Shown one piece after another: positions 5,158 through 43,899 of a stretch of DNA of 64,000 nt (positions are counted from its first letter, which is position 1; each line of letters starts with the position of its first letter). This DNA is from Halorussus litoreus (GTDB lineage Archaea > Halobacteriota > Halobacteria > Halobacteriales > Haladaptataceae): positions 79,265-143,264 of the forward strand of contig NZ_KZ859504.1 of assembly GCF_003382685.1 (NCBI RefSeq), read 5' to 3'. The notes below the pieces were generated by a model that worked only from the letters and a program-made list of their open reading frames with translations, had not been told where the DNA came from and searched no databases. A program made the translations under genes and the position numbers.

Positions 5158-5162
5158 GGATG

Positions 5163-8288: not shown

Positions 8289-9155
8289 ATGCACGATCCA
8301 CCCGACTCAGAGACGCCAGCATTAGCGGACTTCATCGGAACACGAGATTCGTTTCTCGTGATTCGGGATCCGCAACTAGCAAAGACTGGTTCGCAAGCAC
8401 GCGCGCAACTCAGGTCGTTGCCGTTCCTCGCCGAATTCGGCCTGGATAGAGTTTCGCATCCAGAGATATACGATAACGGGTTGCGACTCGTTGAGTACGA
8501 ACTGCTTCCAAACGAGAATCTCCGAGAGAATGGGGTGGATGGTGTCGAGTTTCCACTAGTTCACTACGTCAGCCAAGAGATGCTGACGGGAGAACTACGG
8601 GACGAAGACAGCACGTTCGACGATCAAGACGTTATTCGGCGGCTGCTGCGGAAGCGCCCGGAAAGTCTGCCATATGTGCTCGTCACTGATACGAGTACAC
8701 CGAAGATGCCCCGTCATACGAAGAAACCGGGGAAGTCGTTCATCGACGAGTTCGAGTGCACGGTCACCGATTACAAAGGACTGCTGAAGCGGTACATACA
8801 GTACAACCTCGACTCGGATCTACCGCTATCAACAACGCAGAATCTGTTCTTCCATCAGATTTCTGCGCATCACAAACAGGAGGGTCTCGAGGCAGGCTCG
8901 ATTCCGGTCCTCTTCGATTACACGCAGATTCCGGCTGACAGTCCCGCCTGGGCGCCTCTCTACTACCTCATTCGAGAGGACGTAGACCGTGTACTGGAAG
9001 ATTACTCCGAGCGCATCAGAGAGGCGCTCCGTTCGTGGACTGAGCGCGGGCCCACGCAGAAAGTCGCGAACAGCATGCTCGACATGCTCGAACGTGTAGA
9101 ATTCGAGGAAGATCGATTAGACAGTTATCGTTATCGCCACCAGGAGGATATATGA
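8289..9155 (+). CDS. Helicase-operon gene 1, hypothetical 288-aa protein
   Basis: The family is not recognised. The protein looks soluble and alpha/beta, with an N-terminal stretch (ALADFIGTRDSFLVIRDPQL) and a helical C-terminus. There is no catalytic motif, membrane segment or Cys cluster. The start at ATG 8289 is preferred to the GTG at 8223 because the extra residues are low-complexity Pro/Thr/Lys. It is the first of seven genes packed with overlaps or gaps of under 30 bp. Its stop overlaps the next ATG (ATGA), so it is presumably made in fixed ratio with gene 2. Confidence 0.7.
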   Translation: MHDPPDSETPALADFIGTRDSFLVIRDPQLAKTGSQARAQLRSLPFLAEFGLDRVSHPEIYDNGLRLVEYELLPNENLRENGVDGVEFPLVHYVSQEMLTGELRDEDSTFDDQDVIRRLLRKRPESLPYVLVTDTSTPKMPRHTKKPGKSFIDEFECTVTDYKGLLKRYIQYNLDSDLPLSTTQNLFFHQISAHHKQEGLEAGSIPVLFDYTQIPADSPAWAPLYYLIREDVDRVLEDYSERIREALRSWTERGPTQKVANSMLDMLERVEFEEDRLDSYRYRHQEDI

Positions 9156-10081
9156 GTACAACATACACACCGGCGACCAACAAGCCGGACAAACTACTCA
9201 CCGGGTTCATCTCGGTGCGAGCACCGGAGCTAAAACACATCTATAGCTCACTTCAGGGGACCACCAGTGTCTCTGAAGTCACGAGCAAATTCGGTCGACC
9301 AGCTACCGGCGGTGAGGTGAAAACCGATCACGTCGAAGGGTCACTTCGTTTCCTGAATGCGGTCGATCTCGTCGAGAGTCCGACCGGAGACATCAAAGAT
9401 ACGGTCGAACCCATTAACGAACGGCACTTCGAGGGTCTCCCTTTCGAAGCACGGTTGTTATACCACTGCAATCAGCAGGACGGTCGTCAGTCCCACTTTG
9501 GGGATGTTCACCGGGCCCTACTGAGTGAGGGGAGCCGAACGGTGAACGCTGGCCGAGACAACCTTCGAACCATTCTGAAGCGCGAGACTGACTACGACTT
9601 CAGTTGGACCGACGAGAAGATCGACATGTGGGTGACGTTGTGCGAGCAACTGGGTCTCGTGTCGGAGACCGAGGACGGTCTCGTGCTGAGTCCCTGTCGC
9701 GCGGTGATGTACGACGCGCTCGTACTCGCCCCAACTAGTTCAGGAGAGGACGCAGGCTACGACGGAGAGACAGTTGAAGACGGTGAATTCCGACGCGCAC
9801 TCAACTGGATCAACGACAACTTGTTCACCGTCTACAAGGCACGAACTGGAACGCCGCGGCTTCACCCTGCAATCGCTGATGTCCTCCGTAACATGGAGGA
9901 AGATGGGGTCCTGTCCCTGTCTGCACCCGGCGACGCGCAGAACCAGGTAGAAGTGCCACCAGCAGACCTCGACGATGACGTCCGCGGAAACAGACGAAGC
10001 GTGACGCACGTTTCGATTCATTCTCGACCGGACGAAACGGCGTATCAGTACCCTCTCGACCAACTTCTCACTCACCAATGA
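9152..10081 (+). CDS. Helicase-operon gene 2, DpdG-sized adaptor-like protein
   Basis: This 309-aa soluble protein contains repeated short helical units resembling winged helices (HIYSSLQGTTSVSEVTSKFG; SHFGDVHRALLSEG; MWVTLCEQLGLVSETEDGLV). No enzyme motif is visible. It overlaps both neighbours by four bases (ATGA). In bacterial Dpd clusters a protein of about this size, DpdG, precedes the large ATPase DpdH, as here. I could not confirm homology, so the comparison rests on size and gene order only. Confidence 0.65.
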   Translation: MSTTYTPATNKPDKLLTGFISVRAPELKHIYSSLQGTTSVSEVTSKFGRPATGGEVKTDHVEGSLRFLNAVDLVESPTGDIKDTVEPINERHFEGLPFEARLLYHCNQQDGRQSHFGDVHRALLSEGSRTVNAGRDNLRTILKRETDYDFSWTDEKIDMWVTLCEQLGLVSETEDGLVLSPCRAVMYDALVLAPTSSGEDAGYDGETVEDGEFRRALNWINDNLFTVYKARTGTPRLHPAIADVLRNMEEDGVLSLSAPGDAQNQVEVPPADLDDDVRGNRRSVTHVSIHSRPDETAYQYPLDQLLTHQ

Positions 10082-13000
10082 GCCAACAAATCAAAGATTC
10101 ACCGGCCAGCGGAGAGATGCCCCAATACTGGGACGACGAGGAAGTCGACCACTTCATCACGTCGGAAGCCCACACGAAGAAGAAGACGCCCGAACAGTTC
10201 CGAGAGACCCACGTCGACATCGATCGGATTTACGCAGACACGCTGACCCCACTCGGTATCTCGGGCGACTTCGTCACCCAGGAGAACGTACTCGACGCGA
10301 TTACTGCGTCGAATATCGACGACCCGAACCGTATTTTCATCCTCCGTGGTGAACCAGGGTCGGGGAAAAGCCAGCTCTGTGAATGGACGAAGTACCAGAT
10401 CAATGGGTACGGCGAGGATGACGACGGTGTTGAAGACTACGTCGCCCTGCACGTCTCCCGTAGCCAGACCCGAATGGATCAGATCATCGACGTCCTCACT
10501 GAGCCACTCGACGTCGACACCGATGTCAGAAATATCGATGATCTCGACCCTGCCGATGCGGCCAGTGCTATCGTCGAGTACATGCGCGGCATCTGGTCAA
10601 CCGAGCACTTTTCAGACCAAGAAATACAGGAGCTGACCGAGAGCAGAGGCGATAATAGCGACCTGCGAGAAATCTTCGCCAAGAACATCAGGGAGTATCA
10701 GGAAGCTCTCGATTCTCGTGACGAGAATCCCGACTTCAATCTGCTAACCCGCGCAGATTTCCGCACTCTACGCCTGCAACTGAGCTTCAGTACGAAGCTC
10801 ACGGAGAACAAAGACGTTCTGTACTCTGTCCTGAAGAACGAGGCTCACGAGTACCTTTCCCGCAATCTCGTGGGCGACTTCAAGGAACAGCTACAGCAAT
10901 ACTCGGAGATGTATCAGGAGCGCGGTATCCGGCCGGTACTCATCTGTGAGGACCTCACGACGTTCAGCGTCCTGAAAGAGCAACTCCTGGACCACATCTT
11001 CGAACTTAGTAGTAGCAGCTACGACATCGTCCTCGGTTGGACGATCGGCTGGGAGCAGGACAACATCGACGACGCCCTCGCTCGCGAAGATGCAGCGACG
11101 TACATGCAAGGCCGGTCCGAGGGGTACCTAACGATGACCGACGAGAACGGCGAGGCGTACTTCCTCGACGACGATGCTTCGGTAGCCCTCGCCCGATCGT
11201 ATCTAGGTGCCATCAAACGGAATTCTGATGTGGCAGACGCGCCTCAGGACGTTGCAGAAGCTTTCGACGGTTTATACCCGTTTAACGAGCGCTTCATACA
11301 CGTCGCTTATCGACAGCTAAACGACGAGGGAAGCAACCGGAAGACGCCGCGGCTGTTGCTTCTTCGAGTGGTCAAGCACTGTCTCAAGTCGACGTGGGCA
11401 CCTTACGAAGCGATGAAGTCGAACTCGTTCGTCGACACGCCGACCTTCGAGATCGACATGAAATACGACCAAATCTACCAAGACGTCAGCCGCTGGTACG
11501 GAGTACCTGTCGAGGATGGCGTCGGGGTCAAGGTCGGCATCTTCGAAACGTTCGGCATCGAACTACCGGACGACGACACTGCCGCTGTGAAAGGCGATTA
11601 CGTCGTGTTCGACAAGGGCAAGGGGAGTGCGGTACTCGATAAGATCAAGAATCCGCCGGTACCGGATCACGAGGTCGATACCGAGGACGACGGAGACGAT
11701 ACAGAAAGCAACTCTTCTGAGGTCGAAGACGGCGAAGAAGCAGCAGACGACGAGGATCCAGAAGACGAGCAAGTTGAGGTCATCGACGAACCAGAACTGA
11801 GCGAGGAAGAACGCGAGCGACAGCGCAAATTCCAGGAGTTCCAAGACTGGGTCACGAGCGGCGAAGAGTATCCCAGTTCGGACACGCTCCACGACGGCGC
11901 AGTCGCCGTTCTCGAACGGTGGCACAACCCTACGCGCCTGAGTAATCCGAACTCCTCGACGCGGTCGGTCGGTGGGATTTACTACGCTCGCGGCGACAGT
12001 ATTCCGGTCTCCATTCAAGGAGACCAACAACGCCAAGCTAGCGTCGACATCGAACTCGAATGGGGTGCAGAACACGCCGATCTCTACACTCCGATGCTGG
12101 AGTACGGACTGTTCGATATGTTCGACCCGACGACGACGAACTTCGATCAGCTCCGTGCGTGGGCAGACACTAACGTCGCCCAGTTCCAGCATGAAATGCG
12201 CGAAGAGATCGAGGACTGTCTTCCCGAGGAACTCACGATAGAGAAAACGCTGGTCCTCGCACAGTTCTTCCTTATCAACGCTGCCCGTGGAGTTGAGGTC
12301 GACGACGATCAGATCCCCTCAGAAATCGTCTTCGAGGAGTACGACAGCAACCAGTCGTACGGTAAACCGATCGTCGAAAACTTCGATCGAGATAGCGCGT
12401 TTGGACAGGCGTTCACCGACCTCACCGTGTCGTCGGGGGATATTAGTGACCTTATCGAGGGTTTCTTCCTCCTCAAATCGAACGTCGTAGACTACGAGCG
12501 CCTGTCTGAAGCACGTAGGGAGGTTGCCGAAGACCTCGAGGCACACATCGACGCTACGATGGTCATCGATACCGACGAACTCGCTGACGCGTACAAGGTC
12601 GGAACGACGCGAAATAACGCCAATACAAAGGTATCGAGTCTTTTCGATCGGATTTCGGATTACGCCGCAGAACTCCAGCGGCTCACGGTCGACGACGACG
12701 GATCACACATCCAAAAGGCGCTCGAACCCGTTGAACGGTGGTACGACAGCGGCCATACCGTCGATCAGCTCGCAGAGTGGTTCGAGACGTTGTATCAGTG
12801 CGCAGGTGCGATGGACGTTCCGATCAAGTCGAGTTACGAGGGCGCCTACGAACTGCTCACCGAATCGCCGGAGGAAGTGAAGCTCACGGCCTTCCGTGAT
12901 GACGTTGAGCAGTTCCGGAACATGGGTGACGCAACCGGTGTGACGTTTATCGCTCGACTTCACGACTTCGCCCGGAGCCAAGACGAACAGGCAGCGTGGG

Positions 13001-13155
13001 AGATATACGAGGCGTTCGACTCGCTGATCAGCGATCTCCAAGACCAGGAACACGCTACCGGGGCCGATCTCGAACATCGCATCAAGCAACTCAGCGAGTA
13101 CAGTAACTACGAGCAGAAGCGCCAGTCGATCGTCTCTCTGACGGAGGATCTGTAA
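10078..13155 (+). CDS. Large P-loop ATPase of the helicase operon (DpdH-like in size and place)
   Basis: The 1025-aa protein has a Walker A motif GEPGSGKS at residues 91-98 and a Walker B-like strand VLICEDLTTF near residue 290. The N-terminal about 450 residues thus form an AAA/STAND-type NTPase. A highly acidic linker (about 540-590) separates it from a long helical C-terminal region with no recognised motif. Large ATPases accompany helicase and PLD genes in Dpd (DpdH), DISARM-like and BREX-like systems, where they are thought to sense or remodel target DNA. The exact family is not established. It is co-translated with gene 2 (ATGA overlap) and followed after one base by gene 4. Confidence 0.7.
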   Translation: MSQQIKDSPASGEMPQYWDDEEVDHFITSEAHTKKKTPEQFRETHVDIDRIYADTLTPLGISGDFVTQENVLDAITASNIDDPNRIFILRGEPGSGKSQLCEWTKYQINGYGEDDDGVEDYVALHVSRSQTRMDQIIDVLTEPLDVDTDVRNIDDLDPADAASAIVEYMRGIWSTEHFSDQEIQELTESRGDNSDLREIFAKNIREYQEALDSRDENPDFNLLTRADFRTLRLQLSFSTKLTENKDVLYSVLKNEAHEYLSRNLVGDFKEQLQQYSEMYQERGIRPVLICEDLTTFSVLKEQLLDHIFELSSSSYDIVLGWTIGWEQDNIDDALAREDAATYMQGRSEGYLTMTDENGEAYFLDDDASVALARSYLGAIKRNSDVADAPQDVAEAFDGLYPFNERFIHVAYRQLNDEGSNRKTPRLLLLRVVKHCLKSTWAPYEAMKSNSFVDTPTFEIDMKYDQIYQDVSRWYGVPVEDGVGVKVGIFETFGIELPDDDTAAVKGDYVVFDKGKGSAVLDKIKNPPVPDHEVDTEDDGDDTESNSSEVEDGEEAADDEDPEDEQVEVIDEPELSEEERERQRKFQEFQDWVTSGEEYPSSDTLHDGAVAVLERWHNPTRLSNPNSSTRSVGGIYYARGDSIPVSIQGDQQRQASVDIELEWGAEHADLYTPMLEYGLFDMFDPTTTNFDQLRAWADTNVAQFQHEMREEIEDCLPEELTIEKTLVLAQFFLINAARGVEVDDDQIPSEIVFEEYDSNQSYGKPIVENFDRDSAFGQAFTDLTVSSGDISDLIEGFFLLKSNVVDYERLSEARREVAEDLEAHIDATMVIDTDELADAYKVGTTRNNANTKVSSLFDRISDYAAELQRLTVDDDGSHIQKALEPVERWYDSGHTVDQLAEWFETLYQCAGAMDVPIKSSYEGAYELLTESPEEVKLTAFRDDVEQFRNMGDATGVTFIARLHDFARSQDEQAAWEIYEAFDSLISDLQDQEHATGADLEHRIKQLSEYSNYEQKRQSIVSLTEDL

Positions 13156-13156
13156 A

Positions 13157-13993
13157 ATGAGCGAATCGAAATCACTACCGACGGCCGTTGACGCCCTCGA
13201 AGACAAGGCTCGAGAACACAAGCAGGCACAGAACACGCAGTATCACGTCTCGGTCGCGCGGCACAACATCAGCGAGGTGAACGACGAACTCGACGAACTC
13301 GCTAAGCGTCTTCGAGACCTGAAATACTACAAGACAGTGCTTGAGGAGGCTTTCGACGGTTCCGCGCCATCGATGACCAGTAGCGCGGTTCAGGTGGCGG
13401 AGAAAGCGGTCGAGGTGACTCAAGAGGATCTACTCAAGAACGTCCAGAACGACGACATGGGCGAAGGGGACGCGGAACTCGACGATCTTGGCGCAGACGG
13501 TCAGAGCGACCTCGAGGTCCAACTGACATCGGACGTCGAGACCCATATCGAGCAGATTCGGTCGGCGAAGAAGCAGATAAAGAACGTCACGGAAACCATC
13601 GAGGGTCAACTCGACAGCAAGCGCAACGATTGGAGTACAAAGGTTGCGGCAGCGGAAGAACTCCAGAAGATCCTCGGTGGGCAGGACTCGGACTTCGCGC
13701 GTACACTCAACCACATGCACACGTTGCTTACGCGAGAGTTGATGGACTCGAGTGGAAGCGCCACGAGTTTCGTGTCAAAGTGGGATAACGCCACCAACGA
13801 CTGGGAGAAACATCAATCGCTCCAGAGCTTCGACGACTTTCAAGAGAAGCACGACCTCTCAGACTCCACAATCGAGGACGTAAAGACGCTCAGTAAGTCC
13901 CAACAGCTTACGTTGGCGGATGTCTCGCTCGACTCGCTCGAGGAGATGAAGCGCGTGGATGAACTAGAGTCGGCGGTGGAACTCAACCTGTAA
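13157..13993 (+). CDS. Coiled-coil protein of the helicase operon
   Basis: This 278-aa acidic protein is predicted from sequence to be almost entirely helical. Heptad-like stretches run through VNDELDELAKRLRDLKYY, the region ETHIEQIRSAKKQIKNVTET, and TIEDVKTLSKSQQLTLAD. No catalytic motif is visible. It sits between the ATPase (1-base gap) and the first giant helicase (2-base gap), which suggests a structural or bridging subunit. In a Dpd comparison it would occupy the place of DpdI; homology was not tested. Confidence 0.7.
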   Translation: MSESKSLPTAVDALEDKAREHKQAQNTQYHVSVARHNISEVNDELDELAKRLRDLKYYKTVLEEAFDGSAPSMTSSAVQVAEKAVEVTQEDLLKNVQNDDMGEGDAELDDLGADGQSDLEVQLTSDVETHIEQIRSAKKQIKNVTETIEGQLDSKRNDWSTKVAAAEELQKILGGQDSDFARTLNHMHTLLTRELMDSSGSATSFVSKWDNATNDWEKHQSLQSFDDFQEKHDLSDSTIEDVKTLSKSQQLTLADVSLDSLEEMKRVDELESAVELNL

Positions 13994-13995
13994 CG

Positions 13996-16900
13996 ATGAA
14001 GGATCCCGTCGCCAGCGCGGAAGAAATGCAAGCTGCATACCACGACTACTTTATCGGTCGTGGTGGTCGAGCTGCGCGTAGCGTCGCTAATCGCCTGGCA
14101 GACGGCGAGGACGACATCACGGGAATGCGCGGCCCCTACCTTCAGGCACTCGACATCCCGAACTGGAGCGGCCGTTCGTGGGACGCGTTCGCTAGGTCGG
14201 CACGTCTCGAGCCGCACATCCGCCGGGCTTTCTCGAAGATCGGCTTCGAGCGGCTCTACGACTTCCAGGAGCGTAGTATCGAGGCCATTCTCGAGGGAGA
14301 TGATACCGTCATTACTGCCGCGACGGGACGAGGAAAAACTGAAGCGTGGCTCATTCCCATCCTCAACCGCATCCTCGAAGACAAACGGCATGGTGACGGG
14401 GGTGACGATACGAGCGTCAAGGCCACGCTCATCTATCCGACGAAGGCGCTCGCACAGGACCAGTTGAAGCGCCTCCTCCAGTACCTCTACCTCATCAACA
14501 ACCACCTACGGTCGGAACAACAGATCACCGTCGGTATTTACGACGGTGATACCCCGCGGAATGTCGGCGAATCAGGCTCCGAAGGGTACCTCAACGCGAC
14601 CTTCCGTCACTTCGAGTGCCCCGGGTACAATGACGAACTCGATAAATGCCAAGACTGCGGTGGTGGTGTTCGGATCCGAAACACCGGTGCTCGGTTCAAA
14701 CTCATCCCAGAAAAAGCGCACTGTGAAGACGATGATCCGCACGACGTTCCGCTCGATTTCCTGCGGCTAACGAAGAACGACATCCTCGAGAACGGCGTTG
14801 ACATCCTGCTCACGAACCCGGACACGATCAACTACCGACTCATCAACACTAACGCCGAAGACGAGCACGAGCGGTTCGTCTACGAACCCGAATTCCTCGT
14901 CTTCGACGAGGTCCACACCTACGACGGCCTATTCGGGAGCTACACGTCGACGCTGATGAAGCGAATCCAGTCGCTCCGCGAGGAACGCGGCCTCGACGAC
15001 TTACAACTCGTCGCGAGCAGTGCGACCGTCGAGAACGATGTCGAGTTGTTCCAGAAGGTTAGCGGTGCCGTCGACGTCAAACAGGTGAGTGAGTCACCAC
15101 GCGACCTCGATGGGGAGGTTCCGGACAATGTTCCGGAAGAGCTAACGTCGCACAGTCTGTCCGTCGACCGCATTCTGCGTGCGACGGCCGCGCCGGACGA
15201 CGTTGTTCCGGGCCTCGATGCGTTCGACTACACGCTGGAGGATGCATCGAGCTACGACCGTGACCGCCGGGAGACGCTAGCGAGTGACGCTCTCTTCGAT
15301 TACCTCACTGAAGCCAAGGACGACCCCGGCGCACAGGTCGTTCGCTACGTCCACCAGTTGTTGTACGATGAGCCACTCACGCGGTCCCAACTACACAACG
15401 AGTTAGCGACGACGCTGAATCTCGACACCGATGAAGCATCGAAACTGGTGTCGAACGTCCGGACCCTCGGTGAGTTTTCCGGTATGCTGGAGAACCGAAG
15501 TCACGTGTTCTCTTGGCCAATCGACGGCTTCTATACGTGTCCATCGTGTGACGCAACGTACCGCTCCCCACAGGACGACTGTAACGAGTGTGGGTTCGAC
15601 TTCGTCACGCGCTCTACCTACTGCCGACACTGTAGCGACGAACACCTTGTCGGATGGTACTGTCCAGGCTGCGACCAACTAGAGCCGTACACGCCGACCG
15701 AACACGGGACGATCGACCAAGACGAGGAACACGTCTGCCGCCGATGTGAGGTAGCGCGCGACGATGTCGTCCAGATGGTTCGTACGACGTTCCAGCCGTT
15801 CCTCGAGTGCCTCGACTGTGGACTCCGAACCGAGCGAACGACGACCCGTGACTGTCCCGAGTGCGGTTTCAAAACCGTCAGGACCGACGATGAGACGTTC
15901 ACCTGCGTTAATCCGAAGTGTGAGTCAGCTCACGAGATTGAGCGAGTCTGCGACAACTGTGACGGGACCGACTTCGGGCTAGCTACTGTTGCGAGTCGAT
16001 TCGATTGCCCAGAATGTGGCGCGACTTACGAACACCCCGAGCAGGCCCCTGACCAGTGTGTCGACTGTGGTTCCTCACTCACCTCGACGAGGTTCCTTCC
16101 CTGGGTCTGTGGGAGCGACGATTGTAATCGAGTCCTCTTCGATGATTCCCCCGATCAATGCGACTGTGGCTCATCGTCGTTCGTAAAGCGCGGACTCTTC
16201 GAGATTCACGACGACCAACACTGCCGTTCGTGTGAGACAGCATTCCTCGGCGACGAGGGTTGCAACTGTGACGATCCGGACATCCATCCGCGAACCGGTC
16301 ACCATCAGGCCTACAAGACGATCGACACCAGTGGGTGGATTCACACGATGAGTTCGCAGCCGTCGGCCGTCCCGTGCCCGCATACGTATGCCCGGTACGA
16401 GATTGACCGCCGGTTCGACGAACTGATGCGAGGTCCGAGCAACCTCGCGGTGACCACCTCGCAGTACATGTTGCGCCGCGTTGCTGACGAGGAGGGCCAA
16501 CAGGCGGCGAAGCTCCTGTCGTTCGCTGACTCTCATCGTGACATGAAGGAGCTCAGTCGTGACTTCTCGGAACCAGAGGTCGAGACCCTTCTTGATCAAC
16601 TGTTAATCGAAAGTGCGTCGTCGCGCGACGACGGGAACCAGTGGACGCAGTTCAGTCAAATCCTCGAAGATGCCGCAGACATCGTCGACGAGGTTAACGA
16701 TGCGCTGGAACCCCCTCGAGTCACGAGGAGTGTCGAGTTCGACCTGAAGTCGCGGTTGAAGGATCAGCCCCGGAAGCGATGGGATAACGACGACGCGCTT
16801 CGAGACCGCTTGAACCGGCGCGCAATCGAGCACACATACAGTCAACGCTTGGGTGAACGCGATGGATCCCTCGCCGAGGAGGGCTTGATCGACGTTCGCT

Positions 16901-19524: not shown

Positions 19525-19550
19525 CCAACATCCCACACAAATTGCCACCG

Positions 19551-22500
19551 ATGGATTTCGACCCACTCGAACTCGCGAACTCGATGCGCGAATCGTACGC
19601 TGAACATTACGCCGGTTCTCAGCCACAGCGAGCCGTCAAGAACCTCGTCTCGCGGTATCACGACGGGTCTGGCGAGTCACTGGAGGAGGACCTTCCTGAG
19701 TTCATCCGGACGAAGGGGCCCTACCTCCAAGTGCTCGATCTCCCCCGGATGAGCGATACTTCCTGGGAGAGGTTCGCCGACAACCATGGCCTCCACGATG
19801 ATGTCACCAAGACGTTCTCTGAGGCGGGGTTCCGTTCACTGTACGAGTTCCAGGAGTCAGCGGTCGAATCGGTTCTCGAGGACAACCACACGCTCCTGAC
19901 CGCAAGTACGGGTCGGGGGAAGACCGAGGGATGGCTCATCCCCATCCTCCAGTTCATTACTGAGGCAAAAGCCGGCCAGCACGACGACCATCCACCAGAC
20001 AGTGTCAAGTGCGTCCTCACATACCCGACAAAAGCACTCGCACAGGACCAGTTGAAGCGATTGATCGACTACCTCTTCACGCTCAACCGGGATCGATCGC
20101 CAAACGAGCAAGTGACTGTCGGTATCTACGACGGTGACACCAAGCGTCGCGACCCCGATGAGCTCGCGTACCTCCAAACCACGTTCCAATACTTCGACTG
20201 TCCGTGCGACGAGTGTGACTCGTCGCTGACGGTCCGCCAGCGTGACGACGATTCGTTCGTCGTCGAGCCGATGGTGGAACACGAAGACGATCTCACCTTT
20301 GACTTCATCAAGGTCACCCGTGATGCCATCGTCGAATCACCAGCGGACATCCTGTTGACGAACCCGGACACGATCAATTACCGACTCTTCAACGTCAACG
20401 GCGACGAAGAACAGCAACGCTTCGTCGCCGAGCCGAAATACTTCGTGTTCGATGAGATCCACGAGTATTCCGAACTCTTCGGTTCGTTCACGTCGACGCT
20501 CATGCGCCGGTATATTCGTGAGCGACAGGAACTCAACGGGTACGAGAGTGAGGCAGACGACGACCTCACCATCGTCGGTGCGTCGGCGACCGTAGAGAAC
20601 AAGCGGACGGTTTTCCAGCGCATCAATCCGTTCGTCGACCCTGACGTCGAAGTTGTCGAAGAAGACGAACGTACTCTCGACGCACCGTTCCCTGTCGACA
20701 TTCCCGACGGCTTTGTTTCGGCAGAGATGGACGAAGAGGAGTTACGTGCCGGCGACAGCGATGCCTCGAGGCAGGCACTTGACGCCGCTGATGTAGAGGG
20801 CGGTAGTGAGGGTGTTGATGATGCGCTCTACGAACACCTAGTCGAAGACGAAGGAGGACCCCTTGAGTTCGTCCGCGGGATCTACGCGGCGCTCCGTGAG
20901 ACCCCACTTCGACCAGTCGGCCTTCGAGACCGTCTGATCGACGAGGCAGGGCTCTCCGAGTCCCAGGCAGAGACGGTCGTAGCGAACTTCATGACTATCG
21001 GCGAGGTGTCGGGTATTCTCGAGCGCCGCGCCCACTTGTTCAGTTGGCCGCTCGACGGTTACTATACGTGTATCAACTGTGGGACAGTCTACGACACCCC
21101 GCAGTCGTCCTGTACTGAGTGCGGCCACCACTTCGTGACGAAACTCTCGCTGTGTAACGAGTGTGGTGAAGAGTCGCTTGAATCGTGGTTCTGCCCGAAC
21201 TGTGAGCGCCTTGCGCCTCATACTGTCACGTCGGAAGAGGGCCGCTTCGAGTATTTCCAACGGAGAGAATGTCAATGTGAGACTATCGACGGCGAAACAC
21301 CGGAGATGGTTCGGGTTTACTGGCGACCGTACTACGAGTGTACGGACTGTGGCGATCGTCAGAAGGTTGACCACCAGCATGACTGTCCCGACTGCGACGC
21401 TGCGATGGTCCTCGACGACTCGATGGAGAAGCACGTCTGCACCAACCCAGACTGTGACGGCGAACTCACGGTCGAGGAAGCACGGGAACCCGAATGTCAT
21501 TCCTGCCATTCCACTGCGTTAGAGCCGCTTGCAGACGAGGATGTTCAGTATTGCACTGAGTGTGGAGAGGTCTATGAAGATCCAGAAGGCCAGGAGTGTA
21601 CTACTGACGACTGTGACGGCGAACTCACGCCCAAACGGTTCCTCGGATGGACGTGCAGCGACCCCGGGTGCGACGAAGTGTATTTCGGTAATCCGCCGGC
21701 GTCGTGCAGCTGCAATAAACGGAAACTCGTTCGATCCGCGCTGTTCGACATCAACATGGTCGACGAGTGTCAGTCCTGCGGGCACGAGTTCCTTCCTAAC
21801 GGTCCACACAACTGCAACTGCGACGATCCCGAGATTAGACGCCGAGCGAAGGGCTACGGGAACTTTCGGATAGTAGACGATAACGGACGAATCAGGGAAG
21901 CGAGCAACTTCCCCGGCGGACTGCCGTGTTACCACGAGGATCGGCGAGAGACCTACGCGAAGAACCGGCGATACGACTCGATGCTCCGTGGTCCGGCCAA
22001 TGCTGCTGTGACGAGCGGGCGCTATTTGTTGCGTTCACTGGCAGATCGCGACGATCCCAGTACCTTCGGAGAATCGAAGATGCTCTCGTTCGCGGACAGC
22101 CAGTCCGACATGAAGGAACTCGAGCGGAACTTCCGCGAACCCGAAGAGTCGTTCTTCTTCGACCAGTTGTTCGTAGATAGCGTCAGCTCGGAGGCCGACG
22201 AATCGGGTTGGGCAACACTGTCCGACGTCGTGGAGTGCGGAGTAGACGATGCTCACCAGTACGAAGGGCAATTAGTCGGTAAGGACGGTAACGCCCCGCG
22301 GATGTACGAACATCTGACCGGCTACGACCAGTCGGTCGACGAATACCTGACGGAAGAATTGCTGTCTCGCGTCTTTGAAGGGAAGTACAGTCAGCGTTAC
22401 CGCAGTAACCAACTTAGCGACGAGGGACTGGTCGACGTTCGACTGGACGCCGAACTTGACGAACTCAGCGAGGGCGAGCGTGATTTGCTCGTAGAGGCAA

Positions 22501-25001
22501 TCGGTCAAAACCACCATTATGAGCCAAATCTGGTGGACGAGATCGAGGACGGACACGATCATCTCGATTCCCTCGTCGATCGCGGTATTCTACGTCGCGT
22601 CGAAGAGGAGGGGAGTCGGTACGTCATGGTCGACGAAGATGCGGTCGAATGTGCTGTCGTCGACAACGTGACGCCGACAAACTACAGTCCGAGCGGAGAG
22701 GAATATGCGACCTCGCTCGAGGTCACTCTAGGGCTCGCACCGGATGATGTCATCGAGTTCGGAACGACGATAGAGGACCGGTCGGAGTTCTCTCACTCCC
22801 ATTACTCCCTGACTGCTCAACAGGTTTCGACATCCGACCCGATGATGTTGCTCGCGCGGGCTTACTACGGTGAGACCGATCGCGACGAGCGGCGAAAACT
22901 GGAGTATCAGTTCCGACAGGGGCGGTACCCACACTTCCTCTCGTCCGGGCCGGCAATGGAGTTAGGTGTCGACATCGGCGATCTCAACACGCTCCTCCTG
23001 TACGGGACCCCGCCGAACGCTAACTCGTATCTTCAGCGAATCGGACGTGCGGGTCGGGCTTCGGGCAATTCCCTCATTCACTCGGTCAGCCAGCGGAACC
23101 CCATCGATTACTACTACCACGAACACCCAGAGGAACTCATCGCGGCCGATCCCCAGCAAGTTCCGCTCAACGAGGTGAACCACGAAGTGCTCCACCAGTC
23201 GCTTTCGTGGGCCGTCCTCGACTGGGCTGCGACGACCCAATGGATCCCATGGCGCCGCGAACAGAGCGGTCTCGAAGACCTCATCGTCTGTGACAGCGAG
23301 CCAGTACCGCGAACGGAGCCCCGACCGAACGACGTGATGACGTTCACCGGGGTGCTTTCGTCCACGAACTTCCAAGTCCAGAGTTGGAACGATGATGCTC
23401 CGCTCGAAGCACTTCGGAGGCTTCTCGACGAGAACCGAGACGAAATCGAGCAGTGGTTGGAGGACCTCCTGTCGTTCAGCGTTTGTTCAGCGTGTGGCCG
23501 AAAGCACGCCGCTGGCTACGGCGGGGAGTGTCAGCGTAACGACTGTGACGGTGTCGTCGAGTCGGTTCTCGATAAGCATGGAGACATCGTCGAAGGGATT
23601 CTCGCCGGGACCGAGGACAAACAGAGCTTCGAGGAGACTATCGTCGATCTCTATCGCGACCAGCAAGACGACATCTACGACGACATCGATGAACTTGACG
23701 AGGAAGTGAGTGATTTACGAAGAGAAGAACGGAACACTCGCGACCGCGACGAAAAGCGCCGCCTTCGGGAACAGCGAGAGCAGGTCGAACGTCAACTCGA
23801 CCAACTGAACGACTATCTCGACCGGCTCGAGGACATGGACTTCGGTAGCTATCTGAACCGGGAGAGTCCTGCTGCGTTCGGATTGCGGTCGGTTGGTAGT
23901 TCGGTCGATTACCAACTCGTCGGTGAAGACTTCGAGCACGTCAGCGACGGTTCACGCGAGCGCCGCATCGCTCTCTCTGAACTCCATCCTGGCGCTGCGT
24001 ATCTCTACGACAGCGAGACCTACGTCGTGACACAGGTGTATTGGGAGCCGCTGGAATCTGCACGCATCACTGACGACCTCGAAGATGCGGCTATCTGTCC
24101 AACGTGTGCTTCCGAGTACGATAGCGACACCTCCAACTGCGAGTCGTGCGGGACGCGACTAAAGCCGCTCGTCACTCAGGTCCCGGAACGAGTGATCGCG
24201 TATCAGCACGATCTCCCGCTCAGTTCGACGCCAAGTACCCAGCAACTTCAACCCTCGACGGTCTATCAGAACGATACGGAACCCCAGAGCACGTACGCTC
24301 CTGTCGAAACCGATGCCGGCGATTCGTTCGAGGCGACGTTCTCCCGGGACATCGTCGACGAAAACGGGACCGTCCACGGACAGTTCGAGTACGGTGACGT
24401 CACGCTACTCGCCTCGACGAGTAAATACTGGGCGACCTACAAGGACGGTGGAGCAGACCCATTACCGAACGTGTTTGAGATGTGCGGTGTCGACGGATGT
24501 AACGGAGCAATCGCGAAAACTGGAGACTCGGCATACTGTACGAACAACGTCGAACATCCTGTCGATGAGAGCGAGGCTGTCCGGCCCGCAACGAAGTTCT
24601 CTACGAAGGCGGCCCGGGTACGCTTCGACAGCGAAGAACTCGAACACGGCTTCGCTCACGGCCTCCGAGTCGCACTTCAGTACATCGGCGGCGTTAGTGT
24701 CAGGCAGGTTCCAGAATCCATCGAGGACGAAGGAACACTAGTCTACGATTCCGACGAAGGTGGAAGCGGCATCACCGTGCTGCTGACCCAAGATGACGGA
24801 GAAAAATTCGAACGCGCCGTCGAACTCATGCGTGAGGCGTTTTCACCGGACGAGTCGAAGTGCAACTGCGAGAACGGATGTCCGTTCTGCCTCTACCAGT
24901 ATGGGTGTGTAGAGCAGAACGACCCCGAATCGTTTGCGAAGGACGAACTGCTAGACCTGCTGTCTCACGACCTTCACCTCGAACCGAGGAACGATGAGTG
25001 A
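19551..25001 (+). CDS. Giant DEAD/DEAH-box helicase 2, paralogue of the preceding gene
   Basis: The architecture is the same as the upstream helicase: motif I TASTGRGKTEGW (about residue 117), DEIH box (about 301), SAT motif, zinc-ribbon insert (about 505-760), QRIGRAGR (about 1161-1168), C-terminal coiled coil and CENGCPFCLYQYGC. Colinear identities (KGPYLQVLD, LLTNPDTINYRL, ELGVDIGDL, HSVSQRNPIDYYY) run from end to end, so the pair arose by gene duplication. Both copies keep all helicase motifs, which argues for distinct roles or a heteromeric complex rather than decay. ATG 19551 is preferred over TTG 19542. Its end overlaps the PLD gene by 8 bp. Confidence 0.85.
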   Translation: MDFDPLELANSMRESYAEHYAGSQPQRAVKNLVSRYHDGSGESLEEDLPEFIRTKGPYLQVLDLPRMSDTSWERFADNHGLHDDVTKTFSEAGFRSLYEFQESAVESVLEDNHTLLTASTGRGKTEGWLIPILQFITEAKAGQHDDHPPDSVKCVLTYPTKALAQDQLKRLIDYLFTLNRDRSPNEQVTVGIYDGDTKRRDPDELAYLQTTFQYFDCPCDECDSSLTVRQRDDDSFVVEPMVEHEDDLTFDFIKVTRDAIVESPADILLTNPDTINYRLFNVNGDEEQQRFVAEPKYFVFDEIHEYSELFGSFTSTLMRRYIRERQELNGYESEADDDLTIVGASATVENKRTVFQRINPFVDPDVEVVEEDERTLDAPFPVDIPDGFVSAEMDEEELRAGDSDASRQALDAADVEGGSEGVDDALYEHLVEDEGGPLEFVRGIYAALRETPLRPVGLRDRLIDEAGLSESQAETVVANFMTIGEVSGILERRAHLFSWPLDGYYTCINCGTVYDTPQSSCTECGHHFVTKLSLCNECGEESLESWFCPNCERLAPHTVTSEEGRFEYFQRRECQCETIDGETPEMVRVYWRPYYECTDCGDRQKVDHQHDCPDCDAAMVLDDSMEKHVCTNPDCDGELTVEEAREPECHSCHSTALEPLADEDVQYCTECGEVYEDPEGQECTTDDCDGELTPKRFLGWTCSDPGCDEVYFGNPPASCSCNKRKLVRSALFDINMVDECQSCGHEFLPNGPHNCNCDDPEIRRRAKGYGNFRIVDDNGRIREASNFPGGLPCYHEDRRETYAKNRRYDSMLRGPANAAVTSGRYLLRSLADRDDPSTFGESKMLSFADSQSDMKELERNFREPEESFFFDQLFVDSVSSEADESGWATLSDVVECGVDDAHQYEGQLVGKDGNAPRMYEHLTGYDQSVDEYLTEELLSRVFEGKYSQRYRSNQLSDEGLVDVRLDAELDELSEGERDLLVEAIGQNHHYEPNLVDEIEDGHDHLDSLVDRGILRRVEEEGSRYVMVDEDAVECAVVDNVTPTNYSPSGEEYATSLEVTLGLAPDDVIEFGTTIEDRSEFSHSHYSLTAQQVSTSDPMMLLARAYYGETDRDERRKLEYQFRQGRYPHFLSSGPAMELGVDIGDLNTLLLYGTPPNANSYLQRIGRAGRASGNSLIHSVSQRNPIDYYYHEHPEELIAADPQQVPLNEVNHEVLHQSLSWAVLDWAATTQWIPWRREQSGLEDLIVCDSEPVPRTEPRPNDVMTFTGVLSSTNFQVQSWNDDAPLEALRRLLDENRDEIEQWLEDLLSFSVCSACGRKHAAGYGGECQRNDCDGVVESVLDKHGDIVEGILAGTEDKQSFEETIVDLYRDQQDDIYDDIDELDEEVSDLRREERNTRDRDEKRRLREQREQVERQLDQLNDYLDRLEDMDFGSYLNRESPAAFGLRSVGSSVDYQLVGEDFEHVSDGSRERRIALSELHPGAAYLYDSETYVVTQVYWEPLESARITDDLEDAAICPTCASEYDSDTSNCESCGTRLKPLVTQVPERVIAYQHDLPLSSTPSTQQLQPSTVYQNDTEPQSTYAPVETDAGDSFEATFSRDIVDENGTVHGQFEYGDVTLLASTSKYWATYKDGGADPLPNVFEMCGVDGCNGAIAKTGDSAYCTNNVEHPVDESEAVRPATKFSTKAARVRFDSEELEHGFAHGLRVALQYIGGVSVRQVPESIEDEGTLVYDSDEGGSGITVLLTQDDGEKFERAVELMREAFSPDESKCNCENGCPFCLYQYGCVEQNDPESFAKDELLDLLSHDLHLEPRNDE

Positions 25002-26970
25002 TCCACTCAACGCCGCGAACGAACTCCGGACGCAGTCACCTGAGCGCCTCTGGGCGCTTTCAGCGGAGAGCGTGTACTCTGCGCTCGCCGCAAAAGCAAC
25101 TGGGGAGCCGATACAGGAACGGCTCGAACCGCACGTTCGGACTGAAATAATCAGAACGAATGACGAACGAGGCCGCGATCCCGTCGTCTCGATACACGAG
25201 TGGCTACTCGACGAACTCGGTCTCGTCCACAACGGCACCATTTCGCTACTGGGAATGGTAGTGCTAATCTCGGACGAGCCACAACCGTTCATCCGAACAG
25301 CTACTGTCGCTCGGCTTCAGCCAGCTGAGATGGTGCTTCGCTCGTGCAACGAGATCGAGGAGGATAACGTCCCGAGACGCGAACTCGACAGCCTACTCGC
25401 CGACGAGTGGGATGAAACCGTTCTCGCTCCCCTCTTAGGGTCGCTCGGATTCATGACGATCTATCCCGACAGCGTCGACCTCAATCGGGAACGGATCGAC
25501 AGTTCGCTGTCGGCCCAGCAGACAATGTCTACCGAGACAGTTGTTGCAGAAGCCTATCGCGACATCCTCTCTCGCGTCATCGAATCTGCGGACGCAGTCT
25601 GTCTAGAAGACCTCGTGCAGCGATTAATTGGAACAACTCCGACGAAGGGAGAACTGGAGATGGCCGAGGTAGCAAACCTCGCCAGTACGCAAGCGATCAC
25701 AGTCGATGAAACGGAAATCGAAGACGCAGTCCGTAACCAGCGGCAGGAATACGAGGACGAATTCGACCAAGTGCGGTCACTGCTGGTGCCATCAACTGAG
25801 GCCGACTTAGAGAGAGTCAACACAGACCAGTCGGTCGGACTCGACGATGTATCGGAAGATGCGGATCTTAGCGCTGATGAACGGGAGGCAGCTCTCAAAG
25901 TCGTCGCCACTGTTGCGGCATACCCCGTCCTGGCGACGTTCGACATGCACTTCGTTACTGAGCGGTGGCCGAGCGTAACGCCGTACTCTCTCTACCAAGC
26001 ACTTTCATCAGTTCCGGGAGTCGAGTGTGAGGTCAGCGATGGCCTCGTCGAATTTGAGACCGTGCCAGAAGCTGTCGATGTCGAGGCTGTACGAGATGAA
26101 TATACGAAACACCTCGTGGAACGCTGTTCGGACATTCAGAGTCGCATCGACACCCTCTCTCAAGAGACGGTGTCACTCCCACCAACCCCCGTTGCGACCG
26201 AGTCGATGGTGGTTCAGGACTACGAATCGATCGACAGCGGGGCGATCGCGCCGACCTACTTCACCTACACGCTCGTCGATCCGGACGCTCTCGGAGAGCA
26301 AAAGATGGACGGCTACGCCGGAGATTCACGTGGACTCGGTAGAGAACGGGCACGTCTCCGCCGCTGGCATGAGAGGCGCTCGTCGGGACTGAAACCGTAC
26401 ACTGCAATGACCGACCGCTTGTTCAGCCTCGGCCTCGAGCGCAACATTGAGGACAAGGTTTTGCGCATCATGACACCGTTCGACGACGATACGTTCAATG
26501 AGTACGTGGCCCAGATTCGTCGTCTTCTCGAACACGGCTTCGAGTTGCGTTTGCTCACTCGCCATACGAAGGAACCCTGGGAGTGGCGGCGGCTTCAACG
26601 AAACCTGCTGAGCGAAATCAAAGAACATCGTGATCGAGTGACGGTGCGTACCTATTCGCGGTTCAAGGAACACCAGCGTGTGACGCCCGATATGGACTTC
26701 CGTGATCTCAATGAAATCGGGATTCATGGCAAACTCCAGACGGTCGGTGCACCGGAGGAAGGGGCCGCACTCCTCGGGTCTGCGAACTTCATGGAGAACA
26801 GTTACGACTGGAACCCCGAATGTGGGATCTACACCGAACGAACGCAGTTTGTCGATGCCGCGATCGAATTCTTCGACATCGTATGGGACATCTCGGCGGC
26901 TGACGAATTATCGATTGAGCGGTTGCAAGAGATTCCCGATCACCAGCTAATACCAACGTACTATAGCTAG
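24994..26970 (+). CDS. PLD-type nuclease of the helicase operon (DrmC/DpdK-like)
   Basis: The C-terminal third of this 658-aa protein has one phospholipase-D motif: IHGKLQTV with H577 and K579, followed by LLGSANFMENS, the usual GSAN strand. The Asp of the canonical HxKx4D is replaced by Gly. A second, degenerate half may be around residues 490-540 (RIMTPFDDDTFNEYVAQIRR), or the protein may dimerise. The N-terminal 450 residues are helical and unrecognised; they make the protein much longer than DrmC or DpdK (about 250 aa). As the last gene of the operon and the only nuclease-like gene in it, it is the best candidate for the DNA-cleaving component. Confidence 0.75.
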   Translation: MSDPLNAANELRTQSPERLWALSAESVYSALAAKATGEPIQERLEPHVRTEIIRTNDERGRDPVVSIHEWLLDELGLVHNGTISLLGMVVLISDEPQPFIRTATVARLQPAEMVLRSCNEIEEDNVPRRELDSLLADEWDETVLAPLLGSLGFMTIYPDSVDLNRERIDSSLSAQQTMSTETVVAEAYRDILSRVIESADAVCLEDLVQRLIGTTPTKGELEMAEVANLASTQAITVDETEIEDAVRNQRQEYEDEFDQVRSLLVPSTEADLERVNTDQSVGLDDVSEDADLSADEREAALKVVATVAAYPVLATFDMHFVTERWPSVTPYSLYQALSSVPGVECEVSDGLVEFETVPEAVDVEAVRDEYTKHLVERCSDIQSRIDTLSQETVSLPPTPVATESMVVQDYESIDSGAIAPTYFTYTLVDPDALGEQKMDGYAGDSRGLGRERARLRRWHERRSSGLKPYTAMTDRLFSLGLERNIEDKVLRIMTPFDDDTFNEYVAQIRRLLEHGFELRLLTRHTKEPWEWRRLQRNLLSEIKEHRDRVTVRTYSRFKEHQRVTPDMDFRDLNEIGIHGKLQTVGAPEEGAALLGSANFMENSYDWNPECGIYTERTQFVDAAIEFFDIVWDISAADELSIERLQEIPDHQLIPTYYS

Positions 26971-33367: not shown

Positions 33368-33464
33368 ACGAGAAATTACTAAGGCGGACCTCTATACTTC
33401 ACCTCTTCTGATCCTCTATCGCCCCATTATCTAAGTAAGATAACAGCATATCCGAGCGGGAGGG

Positions 33465-37178: not shown

Positions 37179-37311
37179 TAGCAGAATTGAAAACTGCTTC
37201 CTTTGTTTTAGAAGGCCTCGAAATTCGTGGTAAGTGTAGACGGATGACATAAATTGGAGTTGTGTCATTTTGGCCGGAACTTTCATATCAGAATGTCCCC
37301 TCCCGAGTAGT

Positions 37312-39867: not shown

Positions 39868-39905
39868 CCCCAGTGAACTTCTCTGCCACTAGAATACGAC
39901 CCAGC

Positions 39906-40205: not shown

Positions 40206-40317
40206 TTACTGCTACCTGAGAAGCTTCTGTAAATCCGTTTTACTGATGTTGGCTACCTCTACAGATAGCTTCGGGTAAATCGACGAAGAAAAGCGGTTGG
40301 CGAGTATAAATCCGATA

Positions 40318-43853: not shown

Positions 43854-43899
43854 ACCCGATGGTGATGTGCCACTCCCATAACAATGTTACTAGCACATT

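What the first reader, a model, noticed from the sequence alone, without database searches (positions are those of the whole stretch)
8289..26970. Seven-gene operon with a large ATPase, twin giant zinc-ribbon helicases and a PLD nuclease: probable new defence system
Seen: seven same-strand genes, overlapping or nearly contiguous, encoding two small proteins, a 1025-aa P-loop ATPase, a coiled-coil protein, two helicases of 1842 and about 1816 aa with DUF1998-type ends, and a 658-aa PLD protein. Known: helicase/DUF1998/PLD sets occur in DISARM (drmABC) and in the restriction arm of Dpd (DpdG-K). The fused architecture, duplicated helicase, much longer PLD protein and absence of a DNA methyltransferase in the element match neither cleanly.
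Basis: partly seen in the sequence, partly recalled or inferred. Interest (0 to 1): 0.9.

Follow-up and report, generated by a model that had tools for sequence, protein, structure and literature searches.

The report
Haloarchaeal BRIGADE base-swap defence island
This stretch of a salt-loving archaeon's genome carries what is very likely an antiviral system that replaces some guanines in its own DNA with a modified base and attacks DNA lacking the mark; it fits a kind named in a 2025 preprint but not yet tested, and its role can now be tested in named laboratory archaea.

Summary
The seven genes are real: g1-g7 recur together in 20 of 42 mapped regions, window included, and g1, g2 and g4 in all 26 regions with a g5-type helicase. 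In 391 genomes of the class, 38 of the 39 with the operon's ATPase have DpdA. Profile comparison: g2 DpdG-like, g3 DpdH-like, g5 and g6 DpdJ-related, g7 weakly DpdK-like; g1 and g4 nothing. The whole fits BRIGADE Type II, named in a September 2025 preprint (PMC12458937) and left uncharacterised. So: a defence system, very probably; a new one, no. I add component-level anatomy (two TGTs with intact active sites, g1, DpdG/DpdH relation), one modification arm beside several restriction arms, and a sharp test: Haloarcula vallismortis, host of the dPreQ1-rich, DpdA-less virus HVTV-1, carries a complete BRIGADE II on the contig whose DpdA was suggested in 2019 to modify that virus.

The parts
8289..9155 (+). 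g1, 288 aa, no recognisable family; conserved first gene of the restriction operon
   Evidence: no family hit; 17-row alignment, 40 invariant columns; model pLDDT 69.8, no PDB match at E<=0.001; present in 26 of 26 Type II and g1-g5 regions
9152..10081 (+). g2, 309 aa, DpdG-like
   Evidence: hhalign to bacterial DpdG 94.6% (E 6.6e-8); bacterial DpdG HMM hits 7 haloarchaeal g2 relatives at E<=1e-3, not the window copy itself
10078..13155 (+). g3, 1025 aa, DpdH-like P-loop ATPase
   Evidence: NF041065 8.8e-11 (N-terminal part only, 41 bits against a cut-off of 450), 99.8% over 555 columns, Walker A Lys kept 31 of 31
13157..13993 (+). g4, 278 aa, in the DpdI slot; homology to DpdI not shown
   Evidence: no hit above cut-off; hhalign to DpdI 17.8%; same place between DpdH and DpdJ as an unnamed gene of 234-282 aa in L135, L141, L142
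13996..19524 (+). g5, 1842 aa YprA/MrfA-family zinc-rich helicase (BRIGADE helicase 1)
   Evidence: DpdJ 99.6%; clade with g6 and relatives 100/100
19542..25001 (+). g6, 1819 aa YprA-family helicase, paralogue of g5 (BRIGADE helicase 2)
   Evidence: DpdJ 99.5%; 40.1% identical to g5
24994..26970 (+). g7, 658 aa, C-terminal PLD-like domain (HxK...GSxN, canonical Asp missing), N-terminal half of unknown fold; DpdK-like position
   Evidence: PLDc_2 1.5e-5 (sub-threshold), DpdK 41.5%, C-terminal part against DpdK 64.4%, H/K/S/N kept 22 of 22; model residues about 20-400 mostly above pLDDT 70
30464..33367 (+). DpdA fused to a C-terminal DUF6884/DpdC-like domain, 967 aa
   Evidence: NF041059 273 bits, cut-off 200; PADLOC DpdA 3.8e-73 and DpdC 3.6e-8; both catalytic Asp kept 40 of 40
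33465..34499 (+). second TGT paralogue (archaeal tRNA-TGT-like catalytic domain), 344 aa
   Evidence: TIGR00432 2.4e-41, under cut-off; two catalytic Asp and Zn Cys/His kept 36 of 36; the genome has a separate housekeeping ArcTGT
34496..35392 (+). 298-aa protein (wh298), no family; winged helix suggested by eye only
   Evidence: no hit; 36 of 40 DpdA regions hold it together with TGT2 and the BrxD-like gene
35392..36549 (+). BrxD/SngB-like AAA ATPase, 385 aa
   Evidence: PF10923 3.2e-17; BrxD 4.6e-12, SngB 2.1e-10
42468..43853 (-). DpdB-like (DGQHR) protein, 461 aa; accessory, rare
   Evidence: DpdB 1.1e-22; 99.1%; in 2 of 42 mapped regions
41631..42467 (-). CxxC-rich protein beside the DpdB-like gene, 278 aa; HNH type by similarity to an annotated HNH protein only
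   Evidence: hhalign 95.5% (2-row profile) to an Agrobacterium vitis protein annotated HNH endonuclease that sits near a DGQHR gene in a dpd island

Best explanation
A BRIGADE Type II system: a restriction-modification system whose mark is a replaced base. Modification arm (30464-36549): preQ0 made by the cell's archaeosine pathway is swapped for guanine in DNA by DpdA, perhaps together with the second TGT; the DpdC-like domain converts the nitrile to the amide; the 298-aa protein and the BrxD-like ATPase take the place of the DpdB ATPase. Restriction arm (8289-26970): the DpdG-like and DpdH-like proteins with g1 and g4 recognise DNA lacking the mark and load the paired zinc-rich YprA helicases g5 and g6, which translocate and expose the DNA to the PLD protein g7. 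Shown here: gene content, homologies, conserved catalytic residues, co-occurrence. Inferred: the base, the order of steps, the sensing, and defence itself.
For: DpdA over the curated cut-off and a DpdC-like domain in the same island. DpdA (E<1e-100) in 38 of 39 genomes with g3 (E<=1e-40) against 17 of the other 352; Fisher p 2.7e-38, not corrected for kinship; 36 of 38 pairs on one contig, 32 of 38 within 35 kb. Profile matches g2-DpdG 94.6%, g3-DpdH 99.8%, g5/g6-DpdJ 99.6/99.5%, DpdA-DpdA 100%, DpdC 94.5%. Gene order matches dpdG-dpdH-282 aa-dpdJ-dpdK of an Enterobacter cloacae plasmid. preQ0 supply: QueC and ArcTGT in the own genome; preQ0 genes or a transporter near the module on Halobaculum, Natronorubrum and Haloferax plasmids. 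Helicase tree: g5, g6 and relatives one clade 100/100, apart from DpdJ. BRIGADE description in PMC12458937.
Against: The preprint's own BRIGADE sequence (WP_226013624.1) could not be fetched, so the family label rests on its description. In one search some off-diagonal pairs also score: g5/g6 with DpdF 86-87% (both helicases), BrxD-like with DpdH 57%, TGT2 with DpdA 95.2%, DpdC-like with the DpdA profile 99.4% (its first 246 columns, probably a DpdC-like N-terminus in the Paenibacillus row). No DpdD homologue in the mapped regions; DpdF HMM hits are weak; DpdE HMM hits 9 ORFs in 6 of 42 regions (best 4.3e-51), none in the window, not followed up. g1 matches nothing; g4-DpdI (17.8%) and g7-DpdK (41.5-64.4%) are not significant; bacterial DpdI and DpdK HMMs hit no haloarchaeal ORF. 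17 of 55 DpdA genomes lack g3. G003 keeps part of the restriction arm without DpdA (g5-g7 also gone). The preprint calls the Type II helicases nearly identical; here they are 40.1% identical. My tree does not resolve a link to ARMADA/Druantia (supports 53/50 and 46/7). g7 lacks the canonical PLD aspartate. No experiment on any BRIGADE was found.
Confidence: 0.81

Rival explanations
1. The modification arm is not the self-mark of g1-g7 but an independent anti-restriction device of the mobile element: it coats the element's DNA against host restriction, while g1-g7 act as a modification-blind helicase-nuclease defence.
For: 17 of 55 DpdA genomes lack g3; the modification arm is beside other gene sets in G341, G110, G170 and G026; the best PADLOC name for g5 is DruE; the arms are 44-145 kb apart in G121, G040, G304 and G030 and on different contigs in G111 and G195.
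Against: The reverse case, g3 without DpdA, is 1 of 39 and looks decayed, as expected if restriction without modification is harmful; g2 and g3 are related to the Dpd restriction genes dpdG and dpdH.
Confidence: 0.12
2. A defence system unrelated to Dpd and BRIGADE that sits by chance next to a dpdA module in a defence island.
For: No PADLOC or NCBIfam hit for g1, g2, g4 or g7 at E<=0.01.
Against: Co-occurrence in 38 of 39 genomes and profile matches of g2, g3, g5 and g6.
Confidence: 0.03
3. Housekeeping DNA repair of the MrfA/YprA kind.
For: TIGR03817 and MZB similarity of the helicases.
Against: Patchy: g3 in 43 of 391 class genomes at E<=0.001, absent from 6 of the 8 listed genomes of the own genus; low-GC integrated island with an integrase-like gene; plasmid copies; 98-99% identical g3 in four genomes of two other families.
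Confidence: 0.02

Closest known systems
BRIGADE Type II (Bell et al. 2025 preprint, PMC12458937)
   Same: Haloarchaea; two YprA-family helicases of one clade; PLD protein in the neighbourhood; predicted 7-deazaguanine cluster; Zn motif inside RecA1, Zn array between the RecA halves, CxxC after RecA2, Zn-rich C-terminus.
   Different: Nothing that excludes membership. The helicases are 40% identical here, not 'nearly identical'. The parts of the main text that I saw do not list the remaining genes (g1-g4, second TGT, 298-aa protein, BrxD-like ATPase); the supplement was not read.
Dpd (7-deazapurine in DNA, dpdA-K of bacteria)
   Same: DpdA, DpdC-like domain, DpdG-, DpdH- and DpdJ-related proteins in the same order, PLD protein at the end, preQ0 genes or transporter nearby in some relatives. 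A second TGT also occurs in the Paenibacillus island.
   Different: No DpdD found; no DpdE in the window; DpdB only as a rare accessory; DpdA-C fusion (25 of 40 regions) or adjacent genes (15 of 40); second TGT; two helicases outside the DpdJ branch; PLD protein of 658 instead of 171-179 aa in four bacterial DpdK; extra g1.
BRIGADE Type I (same preprint)
   Same: Our g1-g2-g3-g4-g5 loci with the same modification arm (6 of 42 regions); in three of the six a separate 903-915 aa helicase falls in the DpdJ branch of the tree.
   Different: The window has g6 and g7 instead of the DpdJ-branch helicase.
DISARM (drmABC)
   Same: SF2 helicase with a DUF1998 module and a PLD protein.
   Different: Helicase and DUF1998 in one protein here, no methyltransferase seen, weaker scores (g5: DrmA 1.8e-23 against DruE 6.1e-37 and DpdJ 3.2e-34).
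ARMADA / Druantia (DruE)
   Same: Long zinc-rich YprA helicases; best PADLOC score of g5 is DruE1.
   Different: No PglX-like methyltransferase or BrxHII-like helicase in the operon, PLD protein as a separate gene; separate clades in the tree.

Membership tests
BRIGADE Type II | two YprA-family helicases that both belong to the BRIGADE lineage | tested here: met
BRIGADE Type II | helicases 'ARMADA-like' (same larger clade as ARMADA and Druantia) | tested here: inconclusive
   deep branch supports 53/50 and 46/7; best PADLOC match is DruE, ahead of DpdJ
BRIGADE Type II | the two helicases nearly identical (a remark in the preprint; may mean architecture) | tested here: not met
   40.1% identity over 1762 aligned residues (40.3% in Natronorubrum)
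BRIGADE Type II | predicted 7-deazaguanine modification cluster in the locus | tested here: met
   DpdA over cut-off, DpdC-like domain, second TGT
BRIGADE Type II | PLD or PD-(D/E)xK nuclease in the neighbourhood | tested here: met
   PLDc_2 (sub-threshold); HxK and GSxN in 22 of 22, canonical Asp absent
BRIGADE Type II | only in halophilic archaea | tested here: met
   17 of 17 confirmed genome-contig loci are haloarchaea (a limited pattern scan: 56 stretches matched a pattern)
Dpd (canonical) | DpdA | tested here: met
   NF041059 273 bits, cut-off 200
Dpd (canonical) | DpdB ATPase with the synthesis genes | tested here: not met
   a DpdB-like gene exists at 42468-43853, 6 kb from the synthesis genes, but only 2 of 42 regions have one
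Dpd (canonical) | DpdC | tested here: met
   PADLOC DpdC 3.6e-8; 94.5%; as a C-terminal fusion
Dpd (canonical) | DpdG and DpdH | tested here: met
   94.6% and 99.8%; but far below NCBI's equivalog cut-off for DpdH (41 against 450 bits)
Dpd (canonical) | DpdJ of the Dpd helicase branch | tested here: not met
   g5 and g6 outside the clade of DpdJ and the 900-aa helicases
Dpd (canonical) | DpdD, DpdE, DpdF | tested here: not met
   DpdD HMM hits no haloarchaeal ORF; DpdE HMM hits 9 ORFs in 6 of 42 regions, none in the window; of the 37 DpdF hits 30 were printed, mostly g5- and g6-type helicases (window: g6, 2.4e-4)
Dpd (canonical) | 7-deazaguanine base in DNA | not testable with these tools
   needs LC-MS
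DISARM | helicase DrmA and separate DUF1998 protein DrmB, with a methyltransferase | tested here: not met
   one-piece helicases, DISARM_DrmAL only 17.3 bits against 999; no methyltransferase among 17 window proteins scanned with Pfam

The most novel reading that the evidence does not exclude
The archaeal modification arm is a two-transglycosylase writer (DpdA plus an archaeosine-type TGT that no longer serves tRNA) driven by the 298-aa/BrxD-like pair instead of DpdB, and haloarchaeal tailed viruses have learnt to use it: HVTV-1, which has preQ0 genes and a QueF-like gene but no DpdA, gets its dPreQ1-rich genome by letting the host's BRIGADE writer mark it, so that the host's own self-mark becomes the virus's camouflage against g1-g7. 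The host-DpdA step was suggested in 2019 (PMC6884629); that this DpdA is half of a restriction system is the new part.
Probability: 0.2. Interest if true: 0.75.

Novelty: new member of a known kind. Interest (0 to 1): 0.42.

Why it matters
The restriction side of 7-deazaguanine systems is little explored even in bacteria (a 2025 review, PMC12707154, says so in a passage seen), and BRIGADE 'remains to be characterized in detail' (PMC12458937). The haloarchaeal loci sit in culturable named strains with both arms present (Haloferax gibbonsii ATCC 33959, Haloferax marisrubri, Natrialba hulunbeirensis, Haloarcula vallismortis ATCC 29715), and haloarchaeal viruses are known to carry 7-deazaguanines. 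That makes an open question directly testable: why these viruses replace guanine, and whether host base-replacement restriction is what they evade or exploit.

Tried and rejected
Dead ends: the viral-contig scan with DpdA found no relative. The AlphaFold model of g1 (pLDDT 69.8) gave no PDB match at E<=0.001; that of g7 had a poor PLD half and gave none. PADLOC and NCBIfam say nothing for g1, g2, g4, g7 and wh298 at E<=0.01. wh298 against g1, g2, g7 and DpdG, and g7's N-terminal half against g2 and DpdG, gave no significant hhalign match. Three key Dpd papers are not held, so what I say of Dpd biochemistry beyond the passages read is recalled.

Considered and rejected: canonical archaeal Dpd (several defining genes not met); DISARM; Druantia; housekeeping repair; a new system (my own leaning until brought up the BRIGADE preprint).

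Rows dropped before counts: four weak g3 genomes (G094, G136, G151, G193) and 36 weak DpdA genomes, most matching only the DUF6884 part, one (G131, 1.2e-21) a more distant DpdA; the cut-offs (1e-40, 1e-100) are mine and fall in gaps of the lists. Gene maps cover 41 genomes, the window's included, of the 56 with a strong g3 or DpdA match; G005, G254 and G320, near copies of the window, were among those not fetched. Bacterial profiles have 1-7 sequences each. In the tree the ARMADA label is mine, from operon order; PADLOC calls the Klebsiella protein DruE.


Full report
What was checked. They sit in a stretch of 53.0% G+C (1629-43908) against 68.4% to its right and 65.1% in the 1.6 kb to its left (profile), with an integrase-like gene at 4012-5190. 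Pfam, NCBIfam and PADLOC give: nothing over a cut-off for g1, g2, g4; g3, a weak N-terminal DpdH match (NCBIfam 8.8e-11, 41 bits against a cut-off of 450); g5 and g6, SF2 helicases related to DruE, DpdJ, DrmA and TIGR03817; g7, PLDc_2 just under Pfam's cut-off.

Scanning the neighbours showed a DNA-modification arm 3.5 kb downstream of g7: 30464-33367, DpdA over NCBI's curated cut-off (273 against 200 bits) fused to a C-terminal DUF6884 domain that PADLOC calls DpdC (3.6e-8); 33465-34499, a second tRNA-guanine transglycosylase like archaeal TgtA but shorter and under its cut-off; 34496-35392, a 298-aa protein of no family; 35392-36549, a BrxD/SngB-like ATPase. At 42468-43853 (- strand) lies a DpdB-like gene with a CxxC-rich neighbour. 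GATOR-GC (PMC11888242, passages) also names DUF6884 as dpdC and divides bacterial dpd islands into dpdA-C (synthesis) and dpdD-K (restriction); it covers eight bacterial phyla, and the word archaea does not occur in its main text.

The two arms belong together. In 391 genomes of the window's class (Halobacteria, by the named relatives) g3 matches in 43, in 39 of them at E<=1e-40. DpdA-C matches in 91, in 55 with E<1e-100; the rest match mostly in the DUF6884 part. 38 of the 39 g3 genomes have DpdA, against 17 of the other 352 (Fisher 2.7e-38, not corrected for kinship); 36 of 38 pairs share a contig and 32 of 38 lie within 35 kb. The exception, G003, keeps g1-g3 and part of g4 but has no g5-g7 in the fetched stretch and no DpdA in the genome search. 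I fetched and mapped 42 regions of 41 genomes (window included) out of the 56 with either strong match. DpdA is in 40 regions; 36 of 40 also hold the second TGT, wh298 and the BrxD-like gene. Of the four others, two are cut by what I fetched (G121, G195) and two lack parts (G087, G061). 20 of 42 regions carry g1-g7 (Type II), 6 carry g1-g5 without g6 and g7, 3 (group D) a more distant ATPase-helicase set, 4 g3 with no full-length helicase of these kinds, and 9 no g3 (one of them the second contig of G195). g1, g2 and g4 are present in all 26 Type II and g1-g5 regions. DpdA and DpdC are fused in 25 of 40 regions and separate neighbours in 15 of 40.

Comparison with bacterial Dpd. Reference proteins came from plasmid records of Enterobacter cloacae, Agrobacterium vitis, Nostoc, Deinococcus, Paenibacillus, Skermanella and Methylobacterium. 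Enterobacter has dpdG-dpdH-282 aa-dpdJ-dpdK in the order of g2-g3-g4-g5/g6-g7. hhalign of 14 haloarchaeal against 21 bacterial profiles (up to six pairs of 20% or more printed per row): g2-DpdG 94.6%, g3-DpdH 99.8% over 555 columns, g5 and g6-DpdJ 99.6 and 99.5%, g7-DpdK 41.5% (64.4% with the C-terminal part alone), DpdA-DpdA 100%, DpdC 94.5%, DpdB 99.1%, the CxxC-rich neighbour 95.5% to an Agrobacterium HNH protein; g1, g4 and wh298 nothing at 20% or more. Cross-matches: g5 and g6 with DpdF 86-87%, BrxD-like with DpdH 57%, TGT2 with DpdA 95.2%, DpdA with the Paenibacillus TGT2 93.1%, DpdC-like with the first 246 columns of the DpdA profile 99.4%. Bacterial DpdK, like g7, has HxK and GSxN without the canonical aspartate (alignment printed; the canonical motif is recalled). 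The Paenibacillus dpd island also has a second TGT, which matches TGT2 at 96.6%, so two TGTs are not unique to archaea. Single-profile HMM searches of the mapped regions find DpdG-, DpdH- and DpdJ-type hits, no DpdD, DpdI or DpdK, and DpdE hits in 6 of 42 regions but not in the window.

Catalytic state. Both catalytic aspartates are kept in 36 of 36 TGT2 rows and 40 of 40 DpdA rows, the Zn cysteines in 36 of 36 and 39 of 40 (one gap) (that these are the catalytic residues is recalled from TGT biochemistry). The own genome separately has a housekeeping ArcTGT (622 bits, over cut-off), a further match 3.6 kb on that I take to be ArcS, and QueC. So preQ0 should be available and TGT2 is an extra paralogue.

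What it is called. PMC12458937 (Bell et al., preprint of September 2025; I saw the abstract and outline, passages, and sections 7, 8 and 26) describes BRIGADE: haloarchaeal systems with a predicted 7-deazaguanine cluster, typically a PLD or sometimes a PD-(D/E)xK nuclease, and either an ARMADA-like plus a Dpd-branch YprA helicase (Type I) or two ARMADA-like ones (Type II). My tree of 31 helicases puts g5, g6, the g1-g5 helicases and group D in one 100/100 clade; the separate 903-915 aa helicases found near three of six g1-g5 loci fall with DpdJ (95/92). That is the Type I / Type II split of the preprint. The Zn motif inside RecA1 (C218/C221 in g5), the Cys array at 515-746, the CxxC at 1320 and the C-terminal Cys cluster fit its description of the Type II helicase. 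Three points do not fit or are open: g5 and g6 are 40.1% identical, not nearly identical; the deep link to ARMADA is unresolved in my tree; and the preprint's reference sequence WP_226013624.1 could not be fetched. The words DpdA and TGT do not occur in its main text; its supplement was not read. Ten searches of the held library listed no other paper that I could recognise as describing these loci as a system; one search listed 20 of 237 papers, and listings show titles and abstract beginnings. Most subscription papers are not held.

Link to viruses. Hutinet et al. 2019 (PMC6884629, passages) found about 30% of guanines in Halovirus HVTV-1 as dPreQ1, though the virus has preQ0 genes and a QueF-like gene but no DpdA, and suggested the host DpdA EMA11768 on AOLQ01000002. 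That contig is NZ_AOLQ01000002.1, Haloarcula vallismortis ATCC 29715 (L156); L156 is letter for letter part of G051, which holds a complete BRIGADE II with both arms. All viruses of the Druskaviridae encode the preQ0/G+ pathway according to PMC8651126 (passages). None of this shows defence; it makes it testable.

Mechanism, shown and inferred. Shown: genes, homology, conserved active sites, co-occurrence, mobility (98-99% identical g3 in four genomes of two other families; plasmid copies). Inferred: guanine replacement in host DNA, restriction of unmarked DNA, roles of the single proteins. Scores: a BRIGADE II / Dpd-type restriction-modification system 0.81; interest 0.42, because the kind is already named, though uncharacterised.

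Noticed in passing
615-1661, 40297-41550, 43802-44269: The island is inserted in a beta-CASP RNase gene: the N-terminal part breaks off at about 1622 and the C-terminal part resumes at about 43909, with the 7 bases GATGCTC at both joints; the island carries a complete separate copy of the gene (417 aa). An integration site in a protein gene with a spare copy.
   Followed up: partly
L099 (G110), L097 (G341), L101 (G170), L103 (G026): The same dpdA-tgt2-wh298-brxD arm occurs without g3, next to other sets: a 1136-aa ATPase with a 929-aa DpdJ-branch helicase (G110, G341; in G170 the stretch is cut), or a PglZ-like protein with a 1282-aa DruE/DpdJ-like helicase (G026). The modification arm seems to be shared by several restriction arms.
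   Followed up: partly
L171 2336-19930: Haladaptatus sp. YSMS36 plasmid: another haloarchaeal Dpd-like set with a 352-aa TGT, a 153-aa DUF6884 protein, a 149-aa PLD protein and two helicases.
   Followed up: no
41631-43853; L141 13570-16582: A DpdB-like (DGQHR) gene near an HNH-type gene, in the window, in G273 and in an Agrobacterium vitis dpd island: a possible recurring accessory pair.
   Followed up: partly
L140 27206-34872: Deinococcus taeanensis plasmid carries, beside a dpdE-F-H set, a second locus with a DUF6884 protein, a DpdG-like and a DpdH-like protein that match the haloarchaeal profiles better (hhalign 97.5% and 100%).
   Followed up: no
G040, G304, G348 (regions of L130-L133, L070-L074, L080-L082): ORFs of 594-623 aa that match the bacterial DpdE profile at 3.6e-49 to 4.3e-51 lie in the same mapped regions as BRIGADE loci; linked or not is open.
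   Followed up: no
39152-40205: A three-gene cassette of 110-123 aa proteins, also present beside the DpdA arm of G356; function unknown.
   Followed up: no
37270-38790: Pentapeptide-repeat protein with a C-terminal ion-channel domain, between the modification arm and the right end of the island; might be a second defence gene.
   Followed up: no
29318-30223: Exo/endonuclease/phosphatase-family gene (Exo_endo_phos 3.3e-9) on the opposite strand just before dpdA; 94% identical counterpart at the same place in G178.
   Followed up: no
G159 (L017, L049) and G323 (L127, L128): g3 is broken into two ORFs in G159 and g2 in G323, so some loci are decaying or misassembled.
   Followed up: no
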